DNA of 30,933 nucleotides, from positions 1 to 30,933 of the IMG/VR virus record IMGVR_UViG_3300047443_000097. One strand, given 5' to 3'. The notes below the pieces were generated by a model. That model saw nothing but the letters and a program-made list of their open reading frames with translations. It did not search any database and was not told where the DNA came from. The stretch is from a virus. Shown here piece after piece: positions 18,428 through 24,524 of this stretch (the stretch's first letter is position 1; every line of letters begins with the position of its first letter). The position numbers and the translations under genes were made by a program.

Positions 18428-18508
18428 ATGTCCACGTTCGACGTCATCCTGCTCATCGAGGTCGGCATCATCGCCATCGGGGCACTCCTCGGCTGGCGGC
18501 GGCCCTAA
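18428..18508 (+). CDS. 26-residue membrane microprotein
   Basis: The ATG at 18428 lies eight bases after a near-perfect AGGAGGG (18414-18420). The product reads MSTFDVILLIEVGIIAIGAL then LGWRRP: a single hydrophobic helix (about residues 4-22) with a positive C-terminal tail, which would place the tail inside the membrane face. It is the last rightward gene before the reversed operon, and its stop codon shares bases with the stop of the converging gene (CTAA). A role in lysis or host modification is possible; no family is recognised. The strong binding site and tight spacing make it likely to be real. Confidence 0.62.
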   Translation: MSTFDVILLIEVGIIAIGALLGWRRP

Positions 18509-18714
18509 CCCGGATCGACCTCCGGGTACGGCGGCTGCGCGGCCAAATCCGGGCCGCCGGCCGGCGGCTGCTGTGCGGCGTCTTCGAGCTCCTTCACGCG
18601 CCGCTCCAGCACCTCGACCTGCGCGCGGAGGACGAGAGTCTCGTCGAACAGCTCGCCGCACCGCTTCCGGTAGACAGGGAACGCGTCCTCGACGCTGATC
18701 TGCTGGCCCATCAC
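18505..18714 (-). CDS. Small coiled-coil protein, last gene of the reversed operon
   Basis: This 69-residue protein starts at GTG 18714, which gives the same four-base overlap seen at every other junction of this operon; ATG 18711 is one codon later. The middle ('YRKRCGELFDETLVLRAQVEVLERRVKELEDA', from about residue 15) is a clear coiled-coil and the end is Pro/Gly-rich. It could be a small oligomerisation partner of the neighbouring glycosyltransferase, but no family is recognised. It meets the rightward microprotein head on, with stops overlapping by four bases and no room for a terminator. Confidence 0.68.
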   Translation of the reverse strand: MMGQQISVEDAFPVYRKRCGELFDETLVLRAQVEVLERRVKELEDAAQQPPAGGPDLAAQPPYPEVDPG

Positions 18715-19571
18715 GCCACCTTGTCTGCGAGCTCGCGGTACCGGTCGAGGAGATCGGTCGCGTTGAGGAACGGATGCTGAGGGAAGAACGACCAGTGGCT
18801 GACCAAGGCGTTGCCGCGGAGGATGTTGGGGACGCCCTTTGCGACCGGCTGGTGGATGGTGTGCCAGCTCTCCTCCTCATCGGGGATAAGGACGCCGGGC
18901 TGGGGGAGAGCCGCGTAGTCCTCGCCGCGGCTGGCGAAGCAGCTGACGGAGAACTGGGTGCCGGGCTGGAGCGGGAAGTCCTGGTAGAGGTAGAGCGACT
19001 CGACGGTCCCGGCCTCGATGTGGTCCATGAGCATCTCGTGGAGCTTGACGGCGAACGGCCCGTTGGCCCAGCCGGTGGGGTCCATGCAGTACGCGGACAC
19101 CTGCCCCCACTCCATGGGGATCTTCCCGCAGAGCTGCAGGAAGTGGCTGCAGATCGCGTTGTTGATGATGATCGGGAACACGGCGGTCGGCGCGGGCATC
19201 TCGATACGGGCCCGCACCAGGTTCTCGATCGCCGATTCGTGTAGGTAGACGACGTCATCGTCGAGCCGCAGATAGATCGTCTCGGGGTCCGTCATATACC
19301 GGTAGGCGAGGCCCGTGTACCGCTGCTTCGGCAGGTTGCCGAGGTCGACGCCCTCCGGCCGGTGCTTGAGCTTGAACCAGGGGAACGCCTCAGCGAGCTC
19401 CTGCGCGTAGGCAATGTCGTCTTCCTGGCCGACCGGGTCGGTGTTCATGAACGCCCACACCTCGTCGACCAGGCCTCGGGCGACGTCCCGCTCCAGGTAC
19501 TTGATGAGGATGCTGTACGTCCGGACCCGGCCGTAGGGGGTCCACGCAATGACGCGGCGGCCATCGATCAT
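18711..19571 (-). CDS. Glycosyltransferase, GT-A-like
   Basis: This 286-residue protein starts at ATG 19571, behind AAGGAG and overlapping the previous stop by four bases. The frame is open further upstream but that is antisense to nothing useful and lies within the previous gene. Residues 98-110 read 'TIYLRLDDDVVYL': three Asp at 104-106 preceded by strand residues, the DxD metal and nucleotide-sugar site of GT-A enzymes. It starts with 'RRVIAWTPYGRVRTYSILIKY' near residue 5. The second half has 'PIIINNAICSHFLQL' and 'PMEWGQVSAYCMDP', probably the acceptor side. Sugar and acceptor cannot be read. It acts with the GT-B-like enzyme and epimerase of the same operon. Confidence 0.8.
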   Translation of the reverse strand: MIDGRRVIAWTPYGRVRTYSILIKYLERDVARGLVDEVWAFMNTDPVGQEDDIAYAQELAEAFPWFKLKHRPEGVDLGNLPKQRYTGLAYRYMTDPETIYLRLDDDVVYLHESAIENLVRARIEMPAPTAVFPIIINNAICSHFLQLCGKIPMEWGQVSAYCMDPTGWANGPFAVKLHEMLMDHIEAGTVESLYLYQDFPLQPGTQFSVSCFASRGEDYAALPQPGVLIPDEEESWHTIHQPVAKGVPNILRGNALVSHWSFFPQHPFLNATDLLDRYRELADKVA

Positions 19572-19825
19572 CGGTTCTCCTTGGCACTGTCGGCCTTGTA
19601 GGTGCGGGTGGTCCACGACTTGGCGGCGCGCATCATCCGGCGGGCGGCCCGGTCGGCTTTCCGCTTGGCGCGCTTCTCCGTGAAGCACCAGCCGCCGGCG
19701 CTGTCCAGCTCGCCGTTCAGCGCGGGCCACGGCTGGCAGAGGCTGGCGTTCCACGACCAGGCGAGGGTGCCTTCGTGGACGACGTGGGTGGTGACGTAGT
19801 AGTCGTCACCGTCAGGCTTAATCAC
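19568..19825 (-). CDS. Small basic hypothetical protein
   Basis: This 85-residue protein starts at GTG 19825 (GTGA overlap with the previous stop) and ends in an ATGA overlap with the GT-A gene. The N-terminal half is beta-like with three Trp and a Cys ('EGTLAWSWNASLCQPWPALN' near residue 18), and the second half is a strongly basic helix ('EKRAKRKADRAARRMMRAAK', from about residue 50). The basic helix might bind nucleic acid or membrane phosphates. No family is recognised. Its position between two glycosyltransferases suggests it serves them. Confidence 0.66.
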   Translation of the reverse strand: MIKPDGDDYYVTTHVVHEGTLAWSWNASLCQPWPALNGELDSAGGWCFTEKRAKRKADRAARRMMRAAKSWTTRTYKADSAKENR

Positions 19826-20832
19826 ACCGCCACCTCCACGGGCGCAGAGAGCGCCGCCTGCCACTGCACGTTGATCGCCTGAAGGATCGACCCGGACGCT
19901 TCCCCGCGGGCCGTCATGCCGATCCGTTGGCGCAGCCCCGGGTCGTCTACGAGCTGCTTGAGGTACTTCCCCCACTCGTGCTCGTAGCGGACGAGGAACC
20001 CGTTCTCGCCGTGGCGGATCACCGCCCGGTACGGCTCGATGTCCGATGCGATCAGCGGGATGCCGAGGATCGACGCCTCCAGGAACTTCGTCGCGAACTT
20101 CGCCCGGTTGAACGGGATGTCCCGGTACGGCGCCACCCACACATCCCACTCGCCGACGGCCTGCATGTAGTGCTCGTGTCGTTCCACCCAGCCCAGCGCG
20201 CCGATCTGCCTGCCACGGAGCCCGAGCGCCATGGCGTGCTCGGGGGCGATGCCGACGATGCGGACCTGCACGCCGCCGGGTCGCGGGTAGGTGGAGATCC
20301 GGTTCAGGGCCCGGACGGCTTCCGGGAGTTCGGCGACCGTGGACGACGTGCCAGCCCAGCCGACTGACAGCGGCCGGTCCTTCGCCTGGTAGTCCCGCGG
20401 TGTTCCCAGGTACTGCGCTGGCAGCCCGTTGGGGACGACCCGCACGTCCGGCGCGTAGTCCCGCAGCACGGCCGCCAAGGGTTCGGAGCAGCAGGTGACG
20501 AGGTCGGCGAGCTGCATGTTGTCGGCGAGTCGCTGCAGCATCGCCTGGTCCCAGGTGCGGACGGCTGCACGGTTGACGGGGTCGAGGTGGAAGTAGTCGT
20601 CGTCGACGTCGAGGACGAGCCGCTTCCCCTCGTTCTTCAGCCGCTGCCACATCATGGTCGGCTCGGGCTTGGCGACGCGGCAGCCGACGACGGTGTCCAG
20701 GGCGGGCCAGTCCTTCGGGAGCCGCATCCCGGCGGACACGGCGTGCCCAAGCCATTGCAGGCTCATCCCGGGCAGGATCGCCCGGTACAGGGCCGATCCC
20801 GCCTCGTCGGCAGACCAGAAGTGCACTCTCAT
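19822..20832 (-). CDS. Glycosyltransferase, GT-B-like (GT4 type)
   Basis: This 336-residue protein starts at ATG 20832 in an ATGA overlap. The N-terminal domain begins 'MRVHFWSADEAGSALYRAIL', the start of a Rossmann-like fold. 'VVPNGLP' (132-138) is the hinge found in GT4 enzymes. The C-terminal donor-binding domain has 'SVGWAGTSST' (156-164) and 'KFLEASILGIPLIASD' (249-264), whose Glu252 corresponds to the conserved donor-contacting Glu, followed by 'HGENGFLV' (274-281), a typical GT4 end. It transfers a sugar from a nucleotide donor. The acceptor is unknown. It may act before or after the GT-A-like enzyme. Confidence 0.85.
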   Translation of the reverse strand: MRVHFWSADEAGSALYRAILPGMSLQWLGHAVSAGMRLPKDWPALDTVVGCRVAKPEPTMMWQRLKNEGKRLVLDVDDDYFHLDPVNRAAVRTWDQAMLQRLADNMQLADLVTCCSEPLAAVLRDYAPDVRVVPNGLPAQYLGTPRDYQAKDRPLSVGWAGTSSTVAELPEAVRALNRISTYPRPGGVQVRIVGIAPEHAMALGLRGRQIGALGWVERHEHYMQAVGEWDVWVAPYRDIPFNRAKFATKFLEASILGIPLIASDIEPYRAVIRHGENGFLVRYEHEWGKYLKQLVDDPGLRQRIGMTARGEASGSILQAINVQWQAALSAPVEVAV

Positions 20833-21005
20833 GCCGACGCTTCTCCCGTCCAGAGCGGATCTGCGGCGCGGCGGCGGTACTCCTCAGGGCTGACGATCTC
20901 CGGCTCGAAGCCCCAGGGATGGGCAGCGACCAAGTCCAGGAGCCGTTGAAGGTCCTCAACCGTCATCGTTTTCGGGTGGGGAGGATCGACTGGCTGTTCT
21001 GTCAT
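20829..21005 (-). CDS. Small hypothetical protein
   Basis: This 58-residue protein starts at ATG 21005, overlapping the epimerase stop (ATGA), and ends in the same type of overlap with the GT-B gene. The sequence is Pro-rich at the start, then a helix 'TVEDLQRLLDLVAAHPWG' near residue 15 and an acidic end with 'SPEEYRRRAADPLW'. It is a soluble small protein with no recognised family. Tight overlap with both enzymes supports it as a real gene. Confidence 0.66.
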   Translation of the reverse strand: MTEQPVDPPHPKTMTVEDLQRLLDLVAAHPWGFEPEIVSPEEYRRRAADPLWTGEASA

Positions 21006-22693
21006 GCGGCGATCCCCTCGGCCAGATACCCGGGGAGCCACTGTTCGGCGTAGTAGCGGACGGTGTGGTGGATGCCCTCATCCAACGGCACGAAGTCGGC
21101 GGCGGTCATCCCGATCTGCTGGAGGGTGCTGGTGTCGGCGGTGACGACGGCGTTGGGGACTTCGCCCGGCCGCATCGGCAGATGCTTGATGGCGACAGGC
21201 TCGCGGCCGGTATACCGGGTGGCTTCCTCGGCGACGAGGCGCGCGATGTCGTTGACGGTGAGGGACTCCAGCGGCCCGACCTCCACCGGCTTCTCGGTGG
21301 GCCCGTGGACGGCGGTGTGCTCGAGCGCGGTGACGAACGCCTTGGCGACGTCGGCGACGTACACGCAGTCGGAGATCTGAGTGCCGTCCCCGTACACCTC
21401 GATGTCTGCGCCGGTGAGGGCGCGGCATGCGAACGACGGCGCGATCTTGCGAACCTTGCTGGAATTGTGTGACGCGAACCCGTTCGCAATGTAGGTGTGC
21501 GAAGTGGTCTCGATGTCCCACAGGTCCGTCTCGCCCAGATCGTCGATTGCCACGATGGTCGCTCGCCCGCCGTTCGGCGCCTTGTCTTCCCAGAGACTTG
21601 AAGCCTTCGACATGAGGCGGAGGGGCTGGAACTCACCCAGCAGTCGGAGCCGTGAAGTCAGGCCCGAGACCCACACGTCCACGACGACCCGGCCGTTCTC
21701 CTTGTTTCGAGCCTGGGGTTCGAACTCGAACTCTTTGAGGAGGTGAAGGTACTCGTCGAGCACGGGACCGGGGTTCTGTGTGAACACCGGTCCGTGGCCA
21801 CCCACATGCCCCTCGCCGTCGAGGAGGCCAGAGACGTAGCCATGGGACCGGCTGTCCCCTGTGCCCCAGGTCCGGGACGTAGCCCATGCGATGCGGTCCC
21901 CCGTGCGGAGCTTGCGCGCCTCGATCCACTGGCGAAGCTGCCCCGACGGCGAGGAGGCGAGCCAGGGATGGTCGAGGGAGCATATTACGGACCGGCCATC
22001 GTCGAAGTGCAGTCGGACTGCTTGCTTCCGGGTCGCCCAGGAGCCCGTCACGGTAGCCCGACGCAGCTTTCGCTGCTTCTTTGCCGGAGCGTATTCGTCG
22101 ATGCCGACGATCTCGTCGCCTTCCCGCAGACTGGAGATCGGCCGCCAGGCGAGGTCGGCACAAAGCACGGGGGTGTTCGGGTCGACGCAACCGTAGGGCT
22201 TCGCGATGCTCTGGCCCGGCCCGTAGGCGTTGACGGGGCGGACGATGGTGATCCGGCCGCCGTCGCGGTACAGGTTGTACATGCGGGCCAGATCCTCGGC
22301 CGCGCTCTTGGTGATCGTGTAGCAGCCGGTTCCCTGGAGCCGCATGAAGTGGTTGCCGACTCCCGCGTAGGCGACGGGCAGGTTGTACTGCGTTGCAGCC
22401 TCGAAGACGTTCAGCGAGCCGAGGATGTTCGTCTCCGCCGACGGCCGCGGGTTGCTGATCGTCTCCTGCGTGCCGAGGACAGCCGCGAGGTGGATGATCC
22501 CCTCGCAGTGCGCGGCAGCCTCCGTCACCGCCGTGGCGTCGCGAACGTCGCCGAGGAAGAACTCCTCACCGTCGGCCAGTTGCTGACGGCGATCCTGGTG
22601 GTCCATGACGAGGACCGTGTGGCCGCGCGCGATCAGTTCCTTGCGGATCCAGGAGGCGATGAAGCCCGAGCCCCCGGTGACCAGTACCTTCAT
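21002..22693 (-). CDS. NAD-dependent nucleotide-sugar epimerase/dehydratase, intein-interrupted
   Basis: This 563-residue precursor starts at ATG 22693 behind AAGGAG. The first 168 residues are the N-terminal half of an extended short-chain dehydrogenase: 'TGGSGFIAS' (6-14, dinucleotide binding), 'IIHLAAVLGTQE' (66-77), catalytic Tyr125 and Lys129 in 'YTITK', and 'NAYGPGQSIAKPYG' (155-168). An intein (242 residues) follows. The sequence then resumes with 'SSKVRKIAPSFACRALTGAD' and 'YVADVAKAFVTALEH'. The joined protein would have 321 residues, the normal size. It acts on a nucleotide sugar, probably to make a donor for the two glycosyltransferases. The exact sugar is not known. The third Gly of the usual dinucleotide motif is Ala here. 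Confidence 0.88.
   Translation of the reverse strand: MKVLVTGGSGFIASWIRKELIARGHTVLVMDHQDRRQQLADGEEFFLGDVRDATAVTEAAAHCEGIIHLAAVLGTQETISNPRPSAETNILGSLNVFEAATQYNLPVAYAGVGNHFMRLQGTGCYTITKSAAEDLARMYNLYRDGGRITIVRPVNAYGPGQSIAKPYGCVDPNTPVLCADLAWRPISSLREGDEIVGIDEYAPAKKQRKLRRATVTGSWATRKQAVRLHFDDGRSVICSLDHPWLASSPSGQLRQWIEARKLRTGDRIAWATSRTWGTGDSRSHGYVSGLLDGEGHVGGHGPVFTQNPGPVLDEYLHLLKEFEFEPQARNKENGRVVVDVWVSGLTSRLRLLGEFQPLRLMSKASSLWEDKAPNGGRATIVAIDDLGETDLWDIETTSHTYIANGFASHNSSKVRKIAPSFACRALTGADIEVYGDGTQISDCVYVADVAKAFVTALEHTAVHGPTEKPVEVGPLESLTVNDIARLVAEEATRYTGREPVAIKHLPMRPGEVPNAVVTADTSTLQQIGMTAADFVPLDEGIHHTVRYYAEQWLPGYLAEGIAA
21464..22189 (-). mobile_element. Intein with a single LAGLIDADG-type motif
   Basis: The 242-residue element lies in frame inside the epimerase. 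It begins with Cys1 in 'CVDPNTPVLC', has an 'SLDHPWL' block with its His at residue 74, and ends 'TSHTYIANGFASHN' with the penultimate His and terminal Asn; the next extein residue is Ser. All residues for splicing are present. A single LAGLIDADG-like motif, 'YVSGLLDGEG' (about 118-127), is followed by a short alpha/beta half-domain. Typical inteins with two such motifs are much longer, so a dimeric or reduced homing endonuclease is likely. Removing it restores 'KPYG-SSKVRK', a conserved epimerase stretch. Five hand-counted lines average 62% GC, lower than the extein. Confidence 0.9.
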
Positions 22694-23118
22694 GCCTGCT
22701 GCTCCTTGCTGATGATGTCGCTGTCGAGGGCCTCGACGAGTTCGCCGGTCGGACAGGGCCAGAGCACCCCGCAGCTGGGACAGACGTTGTCGGACTCCAT
22801 CCGCCCGCCGCCCGCCATGTCGAAGCTGCCGTGACCTTCGTGGTGCAGGTCGCGGAACTGTTGGACGTAGCGCTGGAGGCGGACGATCTCGCGGACGTAG
22901 TCGAGGTTCGTGTGGGCGGTGGCGAGGTGCTCGCAAACGGCGGACTCAACGCGTCCGACCCGCTCGGTCATGGCGTGTTCGACTAGGGCCGCGATCCCGG
23001 CTTGGATGCCGTCTTCGATGCGGACGGTGGGCCAGGTGGTGGGGAGTTGTCCGTCGGGTTCGTCGTGGTGCCAGCCGCAGTCGGGCATGGGGCACAGGTA
23101 ACGGGTGCCGCTGGTCAC
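22690..23118 (-). CDS. Cysteine-rich (zinc-ribbon-like) protein, 142 residues
   Basis: It starts at GTG 23118 (GTGA overlap) and ends in an ATGA overlap with the epimerase. An N-terminal 'CPMPDCGWHH' (Cys9, Cys14, His17, His18) and a C-terminal 'CPSCGVLWPC' (Cys113, Cys116, Cys122) bracket a long helical middle ('TTWPTVRIEDGIQAGIAALVEH' from about residue 29, then 'TNLDYVREIVRLQRYVQQFRDL'). The layout suggests two metal sites joined by a helical bundle. No family is recognised and no catalytic motif is visible. It is the largest of four cysteine-rich neighbours. Confidence 0.72.
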   Translation of the reverse strand: MTSGTRYLCPMPDCGWHHDEPDGQLPTTWPTVRIEDGIQAGIAALVEHAMTERVGRVESAVCEHLATAHTNLDYVREIVRLQRYVQQFRDLHHEGHGSFDMAGGGRMESDNVCPSCGVLWPCPTGELVEALDSDIISKEQQA

Positions 23119-23267
23119 GGCGTCGCCTCCCCACCTGCGACGTGCCCGCAGTTGGGGCAGCGGGCTGCGGTGTGCTTGGCCTTCGCGACGTCGCGGACGG
23201 CGATCACGATGGAGTTCGCGAGGACGACGGCGGCGATGATCGCGGTGATGGCGATGGCAGTGTTCAC
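23115..23267 (-). CDS. Membrane protein with C-terminal Cys pair, 50 residues
   Basis: It starts at GTG 23267 in a GTGA overlap. Residues about 3-24 form one transmembrane helix ('ITAIIAAVVLANSIVIAV'). After a basic stretch it ends 'ARCPNCGHVAGGEATP' (Cys37, Cys40). This end is nearly the same as the end of the 108-residue protein two genes upstream, which points to a duplicated 3' cassette. A single C-x2-C pair is not a whole zinc site, so a dimer or a partner would be needed. Function unknown. Confidence 0.68.
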   Translation of the reverse strand: MNTAIAITAIIAAVVLANSIVIAVRDVAKAKHTAARCPNCGHVAGGEATP

Positions 23268-23551
23268 GGCTGCTCCATGCGGGCTTGCTCGTAGGCGCGG
23301 TAGAGGTCTTCGCCGTCGGCGGTGAAGGTGTGACCGCACGGCCGGAACCCGAAGGCGCTCCGGTCACGGACGAACAGGTCGGGGCTGTCGCTGCTGGTGA
23401 CGAGTTCGGTGGGCTGCTGGCCGCAGGTGGGGCAGTGAGGGAACGGCGGAAGGAGGAAGCCCGCCCCCGCGCGTGCGTAGCTCTCGCGGCGGTAGAGCGC
23501 CGTGACGATGGGTGCGAGCTGCTCGCGGGTGAGGTGCGTCGGCTCGTTCAC
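23264..23551 (-). CDS. Zinc-ribbon-like protein, 95 residues
   Basis: It starts at GTG 23551 in a GTGA overlap and ends in another. A helical N-terminus ('LTREQLAPIVTALYRRESY', residues 7-25) precedes a C-x2-C ... C-x-H set: Cys40, Cys43, Cys72 and His74, which could form a complete zinc site. The C-terminal helix is acidic. The protein resembles small actinophage proteins of unknown role that I have seen described only as hypothetical. It might bind nucleic acid or protein. Confidence 0.7.
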   Translation of the reverse strand: MNEPTHLTREQLAPIVTALYRRESYARAGAGFLLPPFPHCPTCGQQPTELVTSSDSPDLFVRDRSAFGFRPCGHTFTADGEDLYRAYEQARMEQP

Positions 23552-23874
23552 GGCGTCTCCGATCCGACGTGCCCACAGTTGGGACAGCGCGCGGGGGCAA
23601 GTCGGCGCATGGCGTCCCAGAAGCGGCGGGCGGCCTCGTCGGGCGTGTAGCCAGGCCCGTACTCCAGCTCGCCGGACGGGTGGATGGTGACCAGCGGCGT
23701 GCGGTTGTCCTCGCCGAGGATGACGATGTTCCGGGGCGGCTCGGCGAACTGGAAGGTCTCGCTCGGCCCGGTGATGAACAGTTGGGACGCCTTGTGCGGG
23801 CAGCGGATCGGCGTGCCCCAGCCGTCGGTGTGCACTTCGCCGCCGCACTCCGGGCGCGGGCACGGGGCGGTCAT
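23548..23874 (-). CDS. Cysteine-rich protein, 108 residues
   Basis: It starts at ATG 23874 (ATGA overlap). The N-terminus has 'CPRPECGGEVH' (Cys5, Cys10) and 'CPHK' (Cys25), which may form one metal site; the C-terminus ends 'ARCPNCGHVGSETP' (Cys97, Cys100). The middle is beta ('IVILGEDNRTPLVTIHPSG') then a helix ('PDEAARRFWDAMRRL'). The end is shared with the 50-residue membrane protein, so the operon has been built partly by duplication. No family is recognised. Confidence 0.7.
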   Translation of the reverse strand: MTAPCPRPECGGEVHTDGWGTPIRCPHKASQLFITGPSETFQFAEPPRNIVILGEDNRTPLVTIHPSGELEYGPGYTPDEAARRFWDAMRRLAPARCPNCGHVGSETP

Positions 23875-23984
23875 CGCGAACTCCGGGCGGCGGGCGTGTA
23901 GTCGATGCGCGCCTCGACCGGCTGCGTAGGCGCAAGGGCGAGGAACGCGAACAGGAGCGCCAGGACGGCGCAGAGGGCGGTCAT
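23871..23984 (-). CDS. Tiny membrane or secreted peptide, 37 residues
   Basis: It starts at ATG 23984 in an ATGA overlap and also ends in one. The sequence opens with a hydrophobic helix, 'MTALCAVLALLFAFLALAPT', and then 'QPVEARIDYTPAARSSR'. This looks like a signal or anchor helix and a short soluble tail. Overlap with both neighbours and the hydrophobic profile support it as a gene, though it is shorter than most annotation cut-offs. Confidence 0.6.
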   Translation of the reverse strand: MTALCAVLALLFAFLALAPTQPVEARIDYTPAARSSR

Positions 23985-24343
23985 CGCTTCGGCTCCGAGT
24001 GGTGGACCGGCTGGCCGCTGCCGCTGGTCTGCGGTTCCTCGTCGACGAGGGTGTACGTCTTGCCGCCGTCCTTCGACATGGCGCGCGAGTCGCGGGCGTT
24101 CTGCCAGATCGGGTAGCCGCTCATCTCGGACCGGTCTTCCCACTCGGCGGGATCGTCGGTGATCGGGCTGAGGGGCTGGTAGCGGAGCAGCTTCTCCAGG
24201 ACGGCGGTGGAGTGTTCGGCGGAGAACCCGCTGTGGCCCATCTCCGCGAAGGCCGCGATGACCTTGCACAGGCCATTCGTGAGCCACTCTTCCTCGCCGA
24301 TCAGGGCGAGTTCGCGGCGGGCGTGATCTACGAGGTTGCTCAT
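23981..24343 (-). CDS. Conserved actinophage hypothetical protein, first gene of the reversed operon
   Basis: This 120-residue protein starts at ATG 24343 behind ACAGGAG; an upstream in-frame extension would run into the structured leader and is rejected. It begins 'SNLVDHARRELALIGEEEWL', has 'VIAAFAEMGHSGFSAEHS' near residue 28, then 'PLSPITDDPAEWEDRSE' and ends with 'SKDGGKTYTLVDEE'. I recognise this as a widespread protein of actinobacteriophages whose function is unknown. Its first place in the operon and strong start make it the probable transcription entry point. Confidence 0.75.
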   Translation of the reverse strand: MSNLVDHARRELALIGEEEWLTNGLCKVIAAFAEMGHSGFSAEHSTAVLEKLLRYQPLSPITDDPAEWEDRSEMSGYPIWQNARDSRAMSKDGGKTYTLVDEEPQTSGSGQPVHHSEPKR

Positions 24344-24364
24344 GTGTGACTCCTGTGCGGGTGG

Positions 24365-24418
24365 GTGCGGGTTCGGTGTGGCAGGGGTGCGAACCCGCAC
24401 GAGAACCACCCCTGCCAC
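24365..24418 (-). promoter_or_regulatory. Interleaved inverted repeats (pseudoknot-capable) before the reversed operon
   Basis: Two perfect inverted repeats are interlaced: GTGCGGGTTCG at 24365-24375 pairs with 24390-24400 (11 bp), and GTGGCAGGGGTG at 24378-24389 pairs with 24407-24418 (12 bp). Their order A-B-A'-B' allows a pseudoknot, or two alternative hairpins each with the other's arm in its loop. The element ends 21 bases before ATG 24343, just ahead of its ACAGGAG site. I infer a structured 5' leader that controls the reversed operon. It could also be a DNA operator. Confidence 0.6.
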
Positions 24419-24524
24419 TGATCCCTGAGCCAGGATCTATCGAGAGCATACCTGTGATTCGTAGGTGAATAGCGGGTCTAGGGCTACGATTCCAAGGTAA
24501 AGGCCCGTCGTGAGGGGAACCCGC
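24419..24524. promoter_or_regulatory. Divergent promoter region between the reversed operon and lysis genes
   Basis: These 106 bases lie between the structured leader and the endolysin start and are AT-richer than the surrounding genes. Both transcription units should start here. Possible elements are TTGGAA-N18-TATTCA reading left (24495 down to 24466) and a poor TAGGTG-N17-TACGAT reading right (24462-24490). The pair GATTCGTAG and CTACGATTC (24456-24464, 24484-24492) makes an imperfect inverted repeat that might be an operator. None of these matches is strong. Confidence 0.35.

What the first reader, a model, noticed from the sequence alone, without database searches (positions are those of the whole stretch)
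18505..24343. Twelve-gene reversed operon inside the late region, with eleven exact 4-base overlaps
Seen: between the tail fibre and the endolysin, twelve genes run opposite to the late genes. With the starts chosen here, every one of the eleven junctions is an ATGA or GTGA overlap of exactly four bases. Such uniform coupling suggests the whole set is translated as one unit in fixed ratios. Known: it encodes GT-A-like and GT-B-like glycosyltransferases and a nucleotide-sugar epimerase. Inferred: a sugar-modification module of unknown target, with cysteine-rich helpers, which may be expressed in lysogeny (a moron) since it is not part of the rightward late unit.
Basis: partly seen in the sequence, partly recalled or inferred. 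Interest (0 to 1): 0.75.

Follow-up and report, generated by a model that had tools for sequence, protein, structure and literature searches.

The report
Late phage sugar operon, structured leader
A group of mostly uncultured temperate Streptomyces phages carries a backwards-facing block of tightly coupled sugar-modifying and defence-related genes, apparently switched on with the virus-particle genes and read from a single entry point behind a previously undescribed folded RNA; in this copy one enzyme is also interrupted by a self-splicing intein and the first gene resembles an inhibitor of a bacterial immune system.

Summary
The block is real: twelve ORFs on the minus strand, linked by exact 4-base overlaps (10 firm; the last could instead be a 1-base TGATG overlap; gene 8 is doubtful). 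Such overlaps mark the whole family: 63% of junctions in about 34 related blocks against 16% on the opposite strand of the same loci. (1) Gene 1 is a Tad3 (anti-Thoeris) homologue. (2) The epimerase gene holds a 242-residue intein, patchily present at one site. (3) The promoter carries two copies of a palindrome that, in 16 near-complete relatives, otherwise occurs only upstream of the terS-position gene (15/16) and portal (11/16); the block therefore looks co-regulated with the late genes, which argues against a lysogenic moron. (4) The 5' leader folds into two hairpins with strong covariation and is found once per phage, always in front of this block. An invariant loop (GUGCGGGU) matches 2-4 downstream ACCCGCA(C) copies, usually next to the ribosome-binding site. 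Rfam has no match. Best model: a late operon read from one structured translational entry point, making enzymes that most likely glycosylate the virion. Timing, coupling, glycan target and switch are inferred; nothing was tested by experiment.

The parts
24483..24497 (-). Distal copy of late-regulon palindrome (CCTTGGAATCGTAGC)
   Evidence: conserved in nearly all relatives with an intact block front
24451..24465 (-). Proximal copy of late-regulon palindrome (CCTACGAATCACAGG), 32 bp from the first
   Evidence: same motif 5' of the terS-position gene and portal in relatives
24445..24450 (-). -10-like TATGCT (TAnnnT in most relatives)
   Evidence: alignment A4; no sigma70 consensus promoter found
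24420..24437 (-). Leader hairpin H1 (5 bp, loop TGGCTCAG)
   Evidence: 4 of 5 pairs show changes on both sides
24378..24418 (-). Leader hairpin H2 (12 bp)
   Evidence: 7 of 12 pairs show changes on both sides, 95% of cells paired
24393..24400 (-). H2 loop octamer GTGCGGGT; TGCGGGT invariant in 26 aligned leaders
24365..24372 (-). Copy 1 of ACCCGCAC, complementary to the H2 loop
24355..24362 (-). Copy 2 of ACCCGCAC, abutting the Shine-Dalgarno AGGAG (24350-24354)
23981..24343 (-). g1: Tad3 family (type I Thoeris inhibitor), 120 aa
   Evidence: Pfam PF25185 E=9e-34; model's top PDB hits are both chains of 9b7d, ThsB-Tad3
23871..23984 (-). g2: 37-aa hydrophobic peptide, conserved near the block front (cluster C5)
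23548..23874 (-). g3: 108 aa, Cys-rich, C-terminal CPNCGHV tail
23264..23551 (-). g4: 95 aa, CxxC-containing
23115..23267 (-). g5: 50 aa, hydrophobic N-terminus plus CPNCGHV tail
22690..23118 (-). g6: 142 aa, two Cys motifs; 96% identical relatives in L003, L004/L025
21002..22693 (-). g7: nucleotide-sugar epimerase (SDR) precursor, 563 aa, split by an intein
   Evidence: Pfam Epimerase 3.6e-35
21464..22189 (-). Intein within g7 (242 aa, C...HN|S; one LAGLIDADG motif)
   Evidence: intein-free alleles read PYG|TSKV, this one PYG|C..HN|SSKV; PF14890 5.6e-5, LAGLIDADG_3 4.6e-4; TIGR01445
20829..21005 (-). g8: 58-aa ORF, doubtful
   Evidence: codon score about 0, no relatives
19822..20832 (-). g9: GT-B (GT4-like) glycosyltransferase, 336 aa
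   Evidence: PF13692 1.9e-11, phrog_7162 1.6e-41
19568..19825 (-). g10: 85-aa ORF, orphan, good codon score
18711..19571 (-). g11: GT-A-fold enzyme with invariant DDD, 286 aa
18505..18714 (-). g12: 68/69-aa protein always behind g11 (start 18714 GTG or 18711 ATG)

Best explanation
A late-expressed, single-entry operon of a temperate Streptomyces-type siphophage. One promoter with two copies of a palindrome shared with the packaging/portal (late) promoters drives a leftward transcript while virion genes are made. The transcript starts with a structured leader (H1, H2, and a loop able to pair with ACCCGCA(C) copies beside the Shine-Dalgarno site) that sets ribosome entry at gene 1. The 4-base overlaps pass ribosomes down the chain, so the leader governs the whole block. 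The core products (NDP-sugar epimerase, GT-B and GT-A transferases; in many relatives a second epimerase plus a GT2 enzyme, once a CmcI-type methyltransferase) most likely build a short glycan on virion protein, tail or capsid. Small accessory genes, here including the Tad3 homologue, rotate around the core. The epimerase becomes active only after its intein splices. Shown here: gene content and order, overlaps, palindrome sharing, hairpin covariation, GT-A fold, intein site occupancy. Inferred: timing, translational coupling, switch, glycan target, splicing, anti-Thoeris activity.
For: Palindrome: all 34 sites with at most 2 mismatches in 16 near-complete relatives lie at the block promoter (17) or before the terS-position gene or portal (17); TerL and portal identified by profile. 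Leader: 11 of 17 helical pairs with double-sided changes, 48 such cells against 14 in shuffles, 95% paired against 40-58% when slid; G-U 24 against A-C 5 cells, so RNA on the block's sense strand; one significant full-length copy per phage, always at the block; loop-repeat duplex -14.3 kcal/mol. Overlaps 63% against 16%. Fixed core order. Intein absent from the nearest exteins. Tad3. No thymidylate-synthase-fold protein, the family of known base hydroxymethylases, in 16 records, which weighs against DNA glycosylation. Virion glycosylation in mycobacteriophages is reported (Freeman 2023, cited in PMC12619734). Thoeris senses capsid protein, a late product (PMC12578639), so a late anti-Thoeris gene makes sense.
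Against: No expression data. The palindrome could be a repressor operator keeping late genes and block silent, or an alternative-sigma element. Loop-repeat pairing is nearly invariant, so covariation cannot test it; the only change (TTGCGGGTT/AACCCGCAA in L005, L008, L034) may be one event. Virion target rests on neighbourhood and shared cis-element only; GT-A neighbours by fold include polypeptide GalNAc transferases and wall-teichoic-acid enzymes alike. Tad3 model has low confidence (pLDDT 69.5).
Confidence: 0.5

Rival explanations
1. Lysogenic moron: the block is expressed from the prophage and glycosylates the host wall or surface, altering receptors and excluding other phages.
For: Reversed orientation, own promoter, temperate lifestyle (integrase; blocks in Streptomyces chromosomes); GT-A model also resembles TarP and RmlT wall-teichoic-acid enzymes.
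Against: Promoter palindrome is shared only with late virion operons.
Confidence: 0.2
2. DNA hypermodification: the enzymes put sugars on phage DNA.
For: Phage glycosyltransferases can hypermodify DNA (Pyle 2024, cited in PMC12619734).
Against: No thymidylate-synthase-family hydroxymethylase in 16 near-complete relatives; shares a late rather than an early cis-element. The Tet/JBP search is uninformative because its control found nothing.
Confidence: 0.08
3. The leader is an antitermination or RNA-stability element, or a protein-binding RNA, not a translational switch.
For: H1 and H2 alone are supported by covariation; the loop-repeat match is invariant. An element near the transcript 5' end could act on RNA polymerase or on RNases.
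Against: ACCCGCA(C) copies abut the Shine-Dalgarno in the window and most relatives, and 2-4 copies are kept; this position suits ribosome access best.
Confidence: 0.3
4. The 4-base overlaps are only compaction or a by-product of cassette exchange and carry no regulatory meaning.
For: Accessory genes swap freely while junctions stay ATGA/GTGA; each gene carries its own Shine-Dalgarno in its predecessor's tail.
Against: Junctions of the same loci on the other strand are mostly not 4-base overlaps (16% against 63%).
Confidence: 0.35

Closest known systems
Virion-glycosylating mycobacteriophages (Freeman 2023, via PMC12619734)
   Same: Actinophages carrying glycosyltransferases thought to decorate capsid or tail proteins
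   Different: Here a reversed multi-gene operon with epimerase, structured leader, late-type palindrome and anti-defence gene; g11 has no close relative among phage records searched (only 23.5% to Synechococcus phage B23)
Mycobacteriophage inteins (PMC5050341)
   Same: Actinophage inteins with a LAGLIDADG-type motif, patchy at one site; weak sequence relatives in a C1 terminase and a Gordonia portal protein
   Different: Host gene is a nucleotide-sugar epimerase; that survey's text holds no 'epimerase' or 'sugar' and its inteins are in nucleic-acid or nucleotide proteins and portal proteins
Tad3, ThsB-binding anti-Thoeris protein (PDB 9b7d)
   Same: Pfam PF25185 far above cut-off; model's top PDB hits
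   Different: 120 aa against 194 aa, weak direct sequence similarity (phmmer E 0.11); accessory gene of a sugar operon
Streptomyces phages JustBecause, Kela, Quantum (epimerase only)
   Same: Intein-free epimerase about 64-68% identical
   Different: Phages of 184-200 kb; the GT-A gene was not found in them

Membership tests
Tad3 (PF25185) | Profile score above curated cut-off | tested here: met
   116.2 bits against 27
Tad3 (PF25185) | Fold like PDB 9b7d | tested here: inconclusive
   Top two hits, E 0.04-0.07, TMq 0.47, low-confidence model
Tad3 (PF25185) | Inhibits Thoeris | not testable with these tools
   Needs a plaque assay
Intein (Hint domain, LAGLIDADG type) | In-frame insert with Cys1 and C-terminal His-Asn followed by Ser, absent from homologues | tested here: met
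Intein (Hint domain, LAGLIDADG type) | Hint splicing domain profile | tested here: inconclusive
   PF14890 E 5.6e-5 and TIGR01445 E 1e-3, both below curated cut-offs
Intein (Hint domain, LAGLIDADG type) | Homing endonuclease domain | tested here: inconclusive
   LAGLIDADG_3 20.8 bits against cut-off 22.5; one motif GLLDGEG
GT-A glycosyltransferase | Rossmann-like GT-A fold with acidic metal motif | tested here: met
   pLDDT 88, Z up to 14.4 to GT-A enzymes, invariant DDD
Nucleotide-sugar epimerase (SDR) | Epimerase profile and YxxxK | tested here: met
   PF01370 3.6e-35; YTITK in the sequence
Moron | Own promoter, expressed in the prophage | not testable with these tools
   Own promoter region present, but its palindrome is shared with late operons
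Known RNA families (Rfam 15) | Match at gathering score | tested here: not met
   None at gathering; only sub-threshold chance matches

The most novel reading that the evidence does not exclude
A new phage RNA regulator: a hairpin loop (GUGCGGGU) that pairs alternatively with one of 2-4 tandem ACCCGCA(C) copies, the last masking the Shine-Dalgarno region, and thereby sets translation of an entire 4-base-coupled, late-timed operon of sugar and anti-defence genes from a single site.
Probability: 0.3. Interest if true: 0.75.

Novelty: new variant of a known kind. Interest (0 to 1): 0.6.

Why it matters
It would link a cis-regulatory RNA, overlap coupling and late timing in one actinophage operon and give a ready test of what such sugar cassettes decorate. 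The leader appears to be an undescribed RNA family with good covariation. The shared palindrome offers a handle on late-gene control in these largely uncultured phages. The intein shows such elements invading a sugar-metabolism gene rather than the usual DNA-related ones.

Tried and rejected
tRNA or attP reading of the 24.35-24.42 kb inverted repeat: no tRNA, no Rfam family; covariation shows RNA hairpins instead. Sigma70 promoter or intrinsic terminator at the front: none found. Palindrome as an immunity-region operator: its other sites are at the terS-position gene and portal. Relatives of g10: none confirmed. GT-A protein against PDB by sequence: only nucleoporin noise, fold search needed. 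Tet/JBP search: its control also found nothing, so no conclusion. Literature searches for Tad3 and for late palindromes in Streptomyces phages found nothing. Further leader copies elsewhere in the phage genomes: none convincing; the remaining matches (E 0.009 and weaker) were the same hairpin read on the other strand or scattered chance-level matches.

Full report
Observation. The twelve minus-strand ORFs and eleven ATGA/GTGA junctions are exactly as described. A mechanical count of ORF chains joined by 4-base overlaps gives 12-13 here and at most 6 on the other strand or in 20 shuffles. My own gene caller, which gives no credit for overlaps, recovers most of these junctions. In about 34 related blocks it reads 200 of 316 junctions as 4-base overlaps, against 58 of 371 on the opposite strand of the same loci (one locus was entered twice, which changes little). 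The trait therefore belongs to the block family. Two reservations: the last gene may start at the ATG inside GTGATG, a 1-base overlap as called in about half of the relatives, and gene 8 has no coding signal and no relatives.

Distribution. Relatives of the GT-A protein (g11) were found in 34 viral contigs and in 6 bacterial genomes, five Streptomyces and one Acrocarpospora. In most of them the block lies reversed, with tail-fibre and tape-measure homologues behind it on the opposite strand and often a lysin homologue before it. The core order is fixed: small genes, epimerase, GT-B, optional second epimerase plus GT2 enzyme, GT-A protein, g12. Everything else rotates. Accessory genes include HNH, AP2 and endonuclease VII homing-type genes, HTH proteins, a CmcI-type methyltransferase and Tad3. 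Tad3 is first in the window but sits between epimerase and GT-B in L029/L053 and L050. Among 50,697 phage records g11 has only one hit, 23.5% identical to Synechococcus phage B23, so this phage group is largely uncultured. The window carries a tyrosine integrase, as do 9 of 16 relatives.

Proteins. g1 matches Pfam Tad3 at 9e-34; its low-confidence model has the two chains of the ThsB-Tad3 complex as top PDB hits. g9 is a GT-B, GT4-like enzyme. g11 has no family match, but its model (pLDDT 88) matches GT-A enzymes at Z up to 14.4 and has an invariant DDD. g7 is a sugar epimerase with YxxxK; its nearest solved relatives are NAD-dependent epimerases.

Intein. g7 carries a 242-residue insert. Intein-free alleles read PYG|TSKV, occupied ones PYG|C...HN|SSKV. 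It occurs in 3 of 31 aligned epimerases, on three separate branches of the extein tree. The window's nearest exteins (94%) lack it, and L016 and L040 are more alike in the intein (89.9% DNA) than in the extein (81.9%). This fits mobility. Hint and LAGLIDADG profiles match but stay below curated cut-offs. The survey of mycobacteriophage inteins places them in DNA-related, nucleotide-metabolism and portal proteins and does not mention epimerases (PMC5050341).

Promoter. In front of g1 lie two 15-bp palindromes 32 bp apart (CCTTGGAATCGTAGC, CCTACGAATCACAGG) and a TATGCT. In 16 relatives of 67-82 kb, all 34 sites with at most two mismatches are either at the block (17) or before the terS-position gene or the portal gene (17). 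The palindrome (with slightly weaker matches allowed) lies 24-136 bp before the terS-position gene in 15 of 16 and 14-83 bp before portal in 11 of 16; TerL and portal were confirmed by profile. I read this as membership in the late regulon. It speaks against expression in lysogeny, but a repressor operator shared by late genes and block is not excluded.

Leader RNA. Between promoter and start codon lies a leader of about 100 nt. Hairpins H1 and H2 have changes on both sides in 11 of 17 pairs, 48 such cells against 14.3 in shuffles, and 95% of all cells in the tested structure (the invariant loop-repeat helix included) form standard pairs, against 40-58% when partners are slid. G-U pairs outnumber A-C mismatches 24 to 5, which points to RNA of the block's sense strand. 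A covariance model finds one significant full-length copy in each of 16 phage records, always at this block, and matches 35 of the sources held. Rfam has no match. The H2 loop TGCGGGT is invariant in 26 aligned leaders and complementary to 2-4 downstream ACCCGCA(C) copies, in the window the last abutting AGGAG. This pairing has no covariation support of its own apart from the TTGCGGGTT/AACCCGCAA leaders (L005, L008, L034).

Mechanism. Most likely the leader sets ribosome entry at gene 1 and the overlaps carry translation onward, so one site controls all genes. Late timing and the neighbourhood of virion genes favour a virion glycan, as reported for mycobacteriophages (PMC12619734). DNA glycosylation is less likely: no thymidylate-synthase-family protein in 16 relatives. 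A late anti-Thoeris gene is sensible because Thoeris senses capsid protein (PMC12578639). All of this paragraph is inference.

Noticed in passing
18428-18508 (+): A 26-aa hydrophobic peptide gene (MSTFDVILLIEVGIIAIGALLGWRRP) convergent with, and overlapping by 4 bases, the end of g12.
   Followed up: no
23548-23874 and 23115-23267 (-): Two unrelated small proteins (g3, g5) share a C-terminal RCPNCGHV tail, which recurs in other small genes just before the epimerase in relatives; possible recombination seam or half zinc ribbon.
   Followed up: partly
L011, L017, L025, L027, L037 blocks: HNH, AP2 and endonuclease VII genes inside relatives' blocks suggest the block is a hotspot for homing elements.
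   Followed up: partly
L003:8712-9347: CmcI/rhamnosyl O-methyltransferase-like gene (PF04989, E 3.1e-47) between GT-B and GT-A genes, hinting at a methylated sugar in one relative.
   Followed up: no
Arthrobacter phages (one search hits, e.g. Tatanka gene 60): Tad3-family homologues annotated as hypothetical or membrane proteins in about 40 Arthrobacter phage records.
   Followed up: no
L056-L063, 5' of the terS-position gene: The late palindrome lies between the terS-position gene and, in several records, a divergent small basic protein gene (VYRALRRKG...), so it may serve divergent promoters.
   Followed up: no
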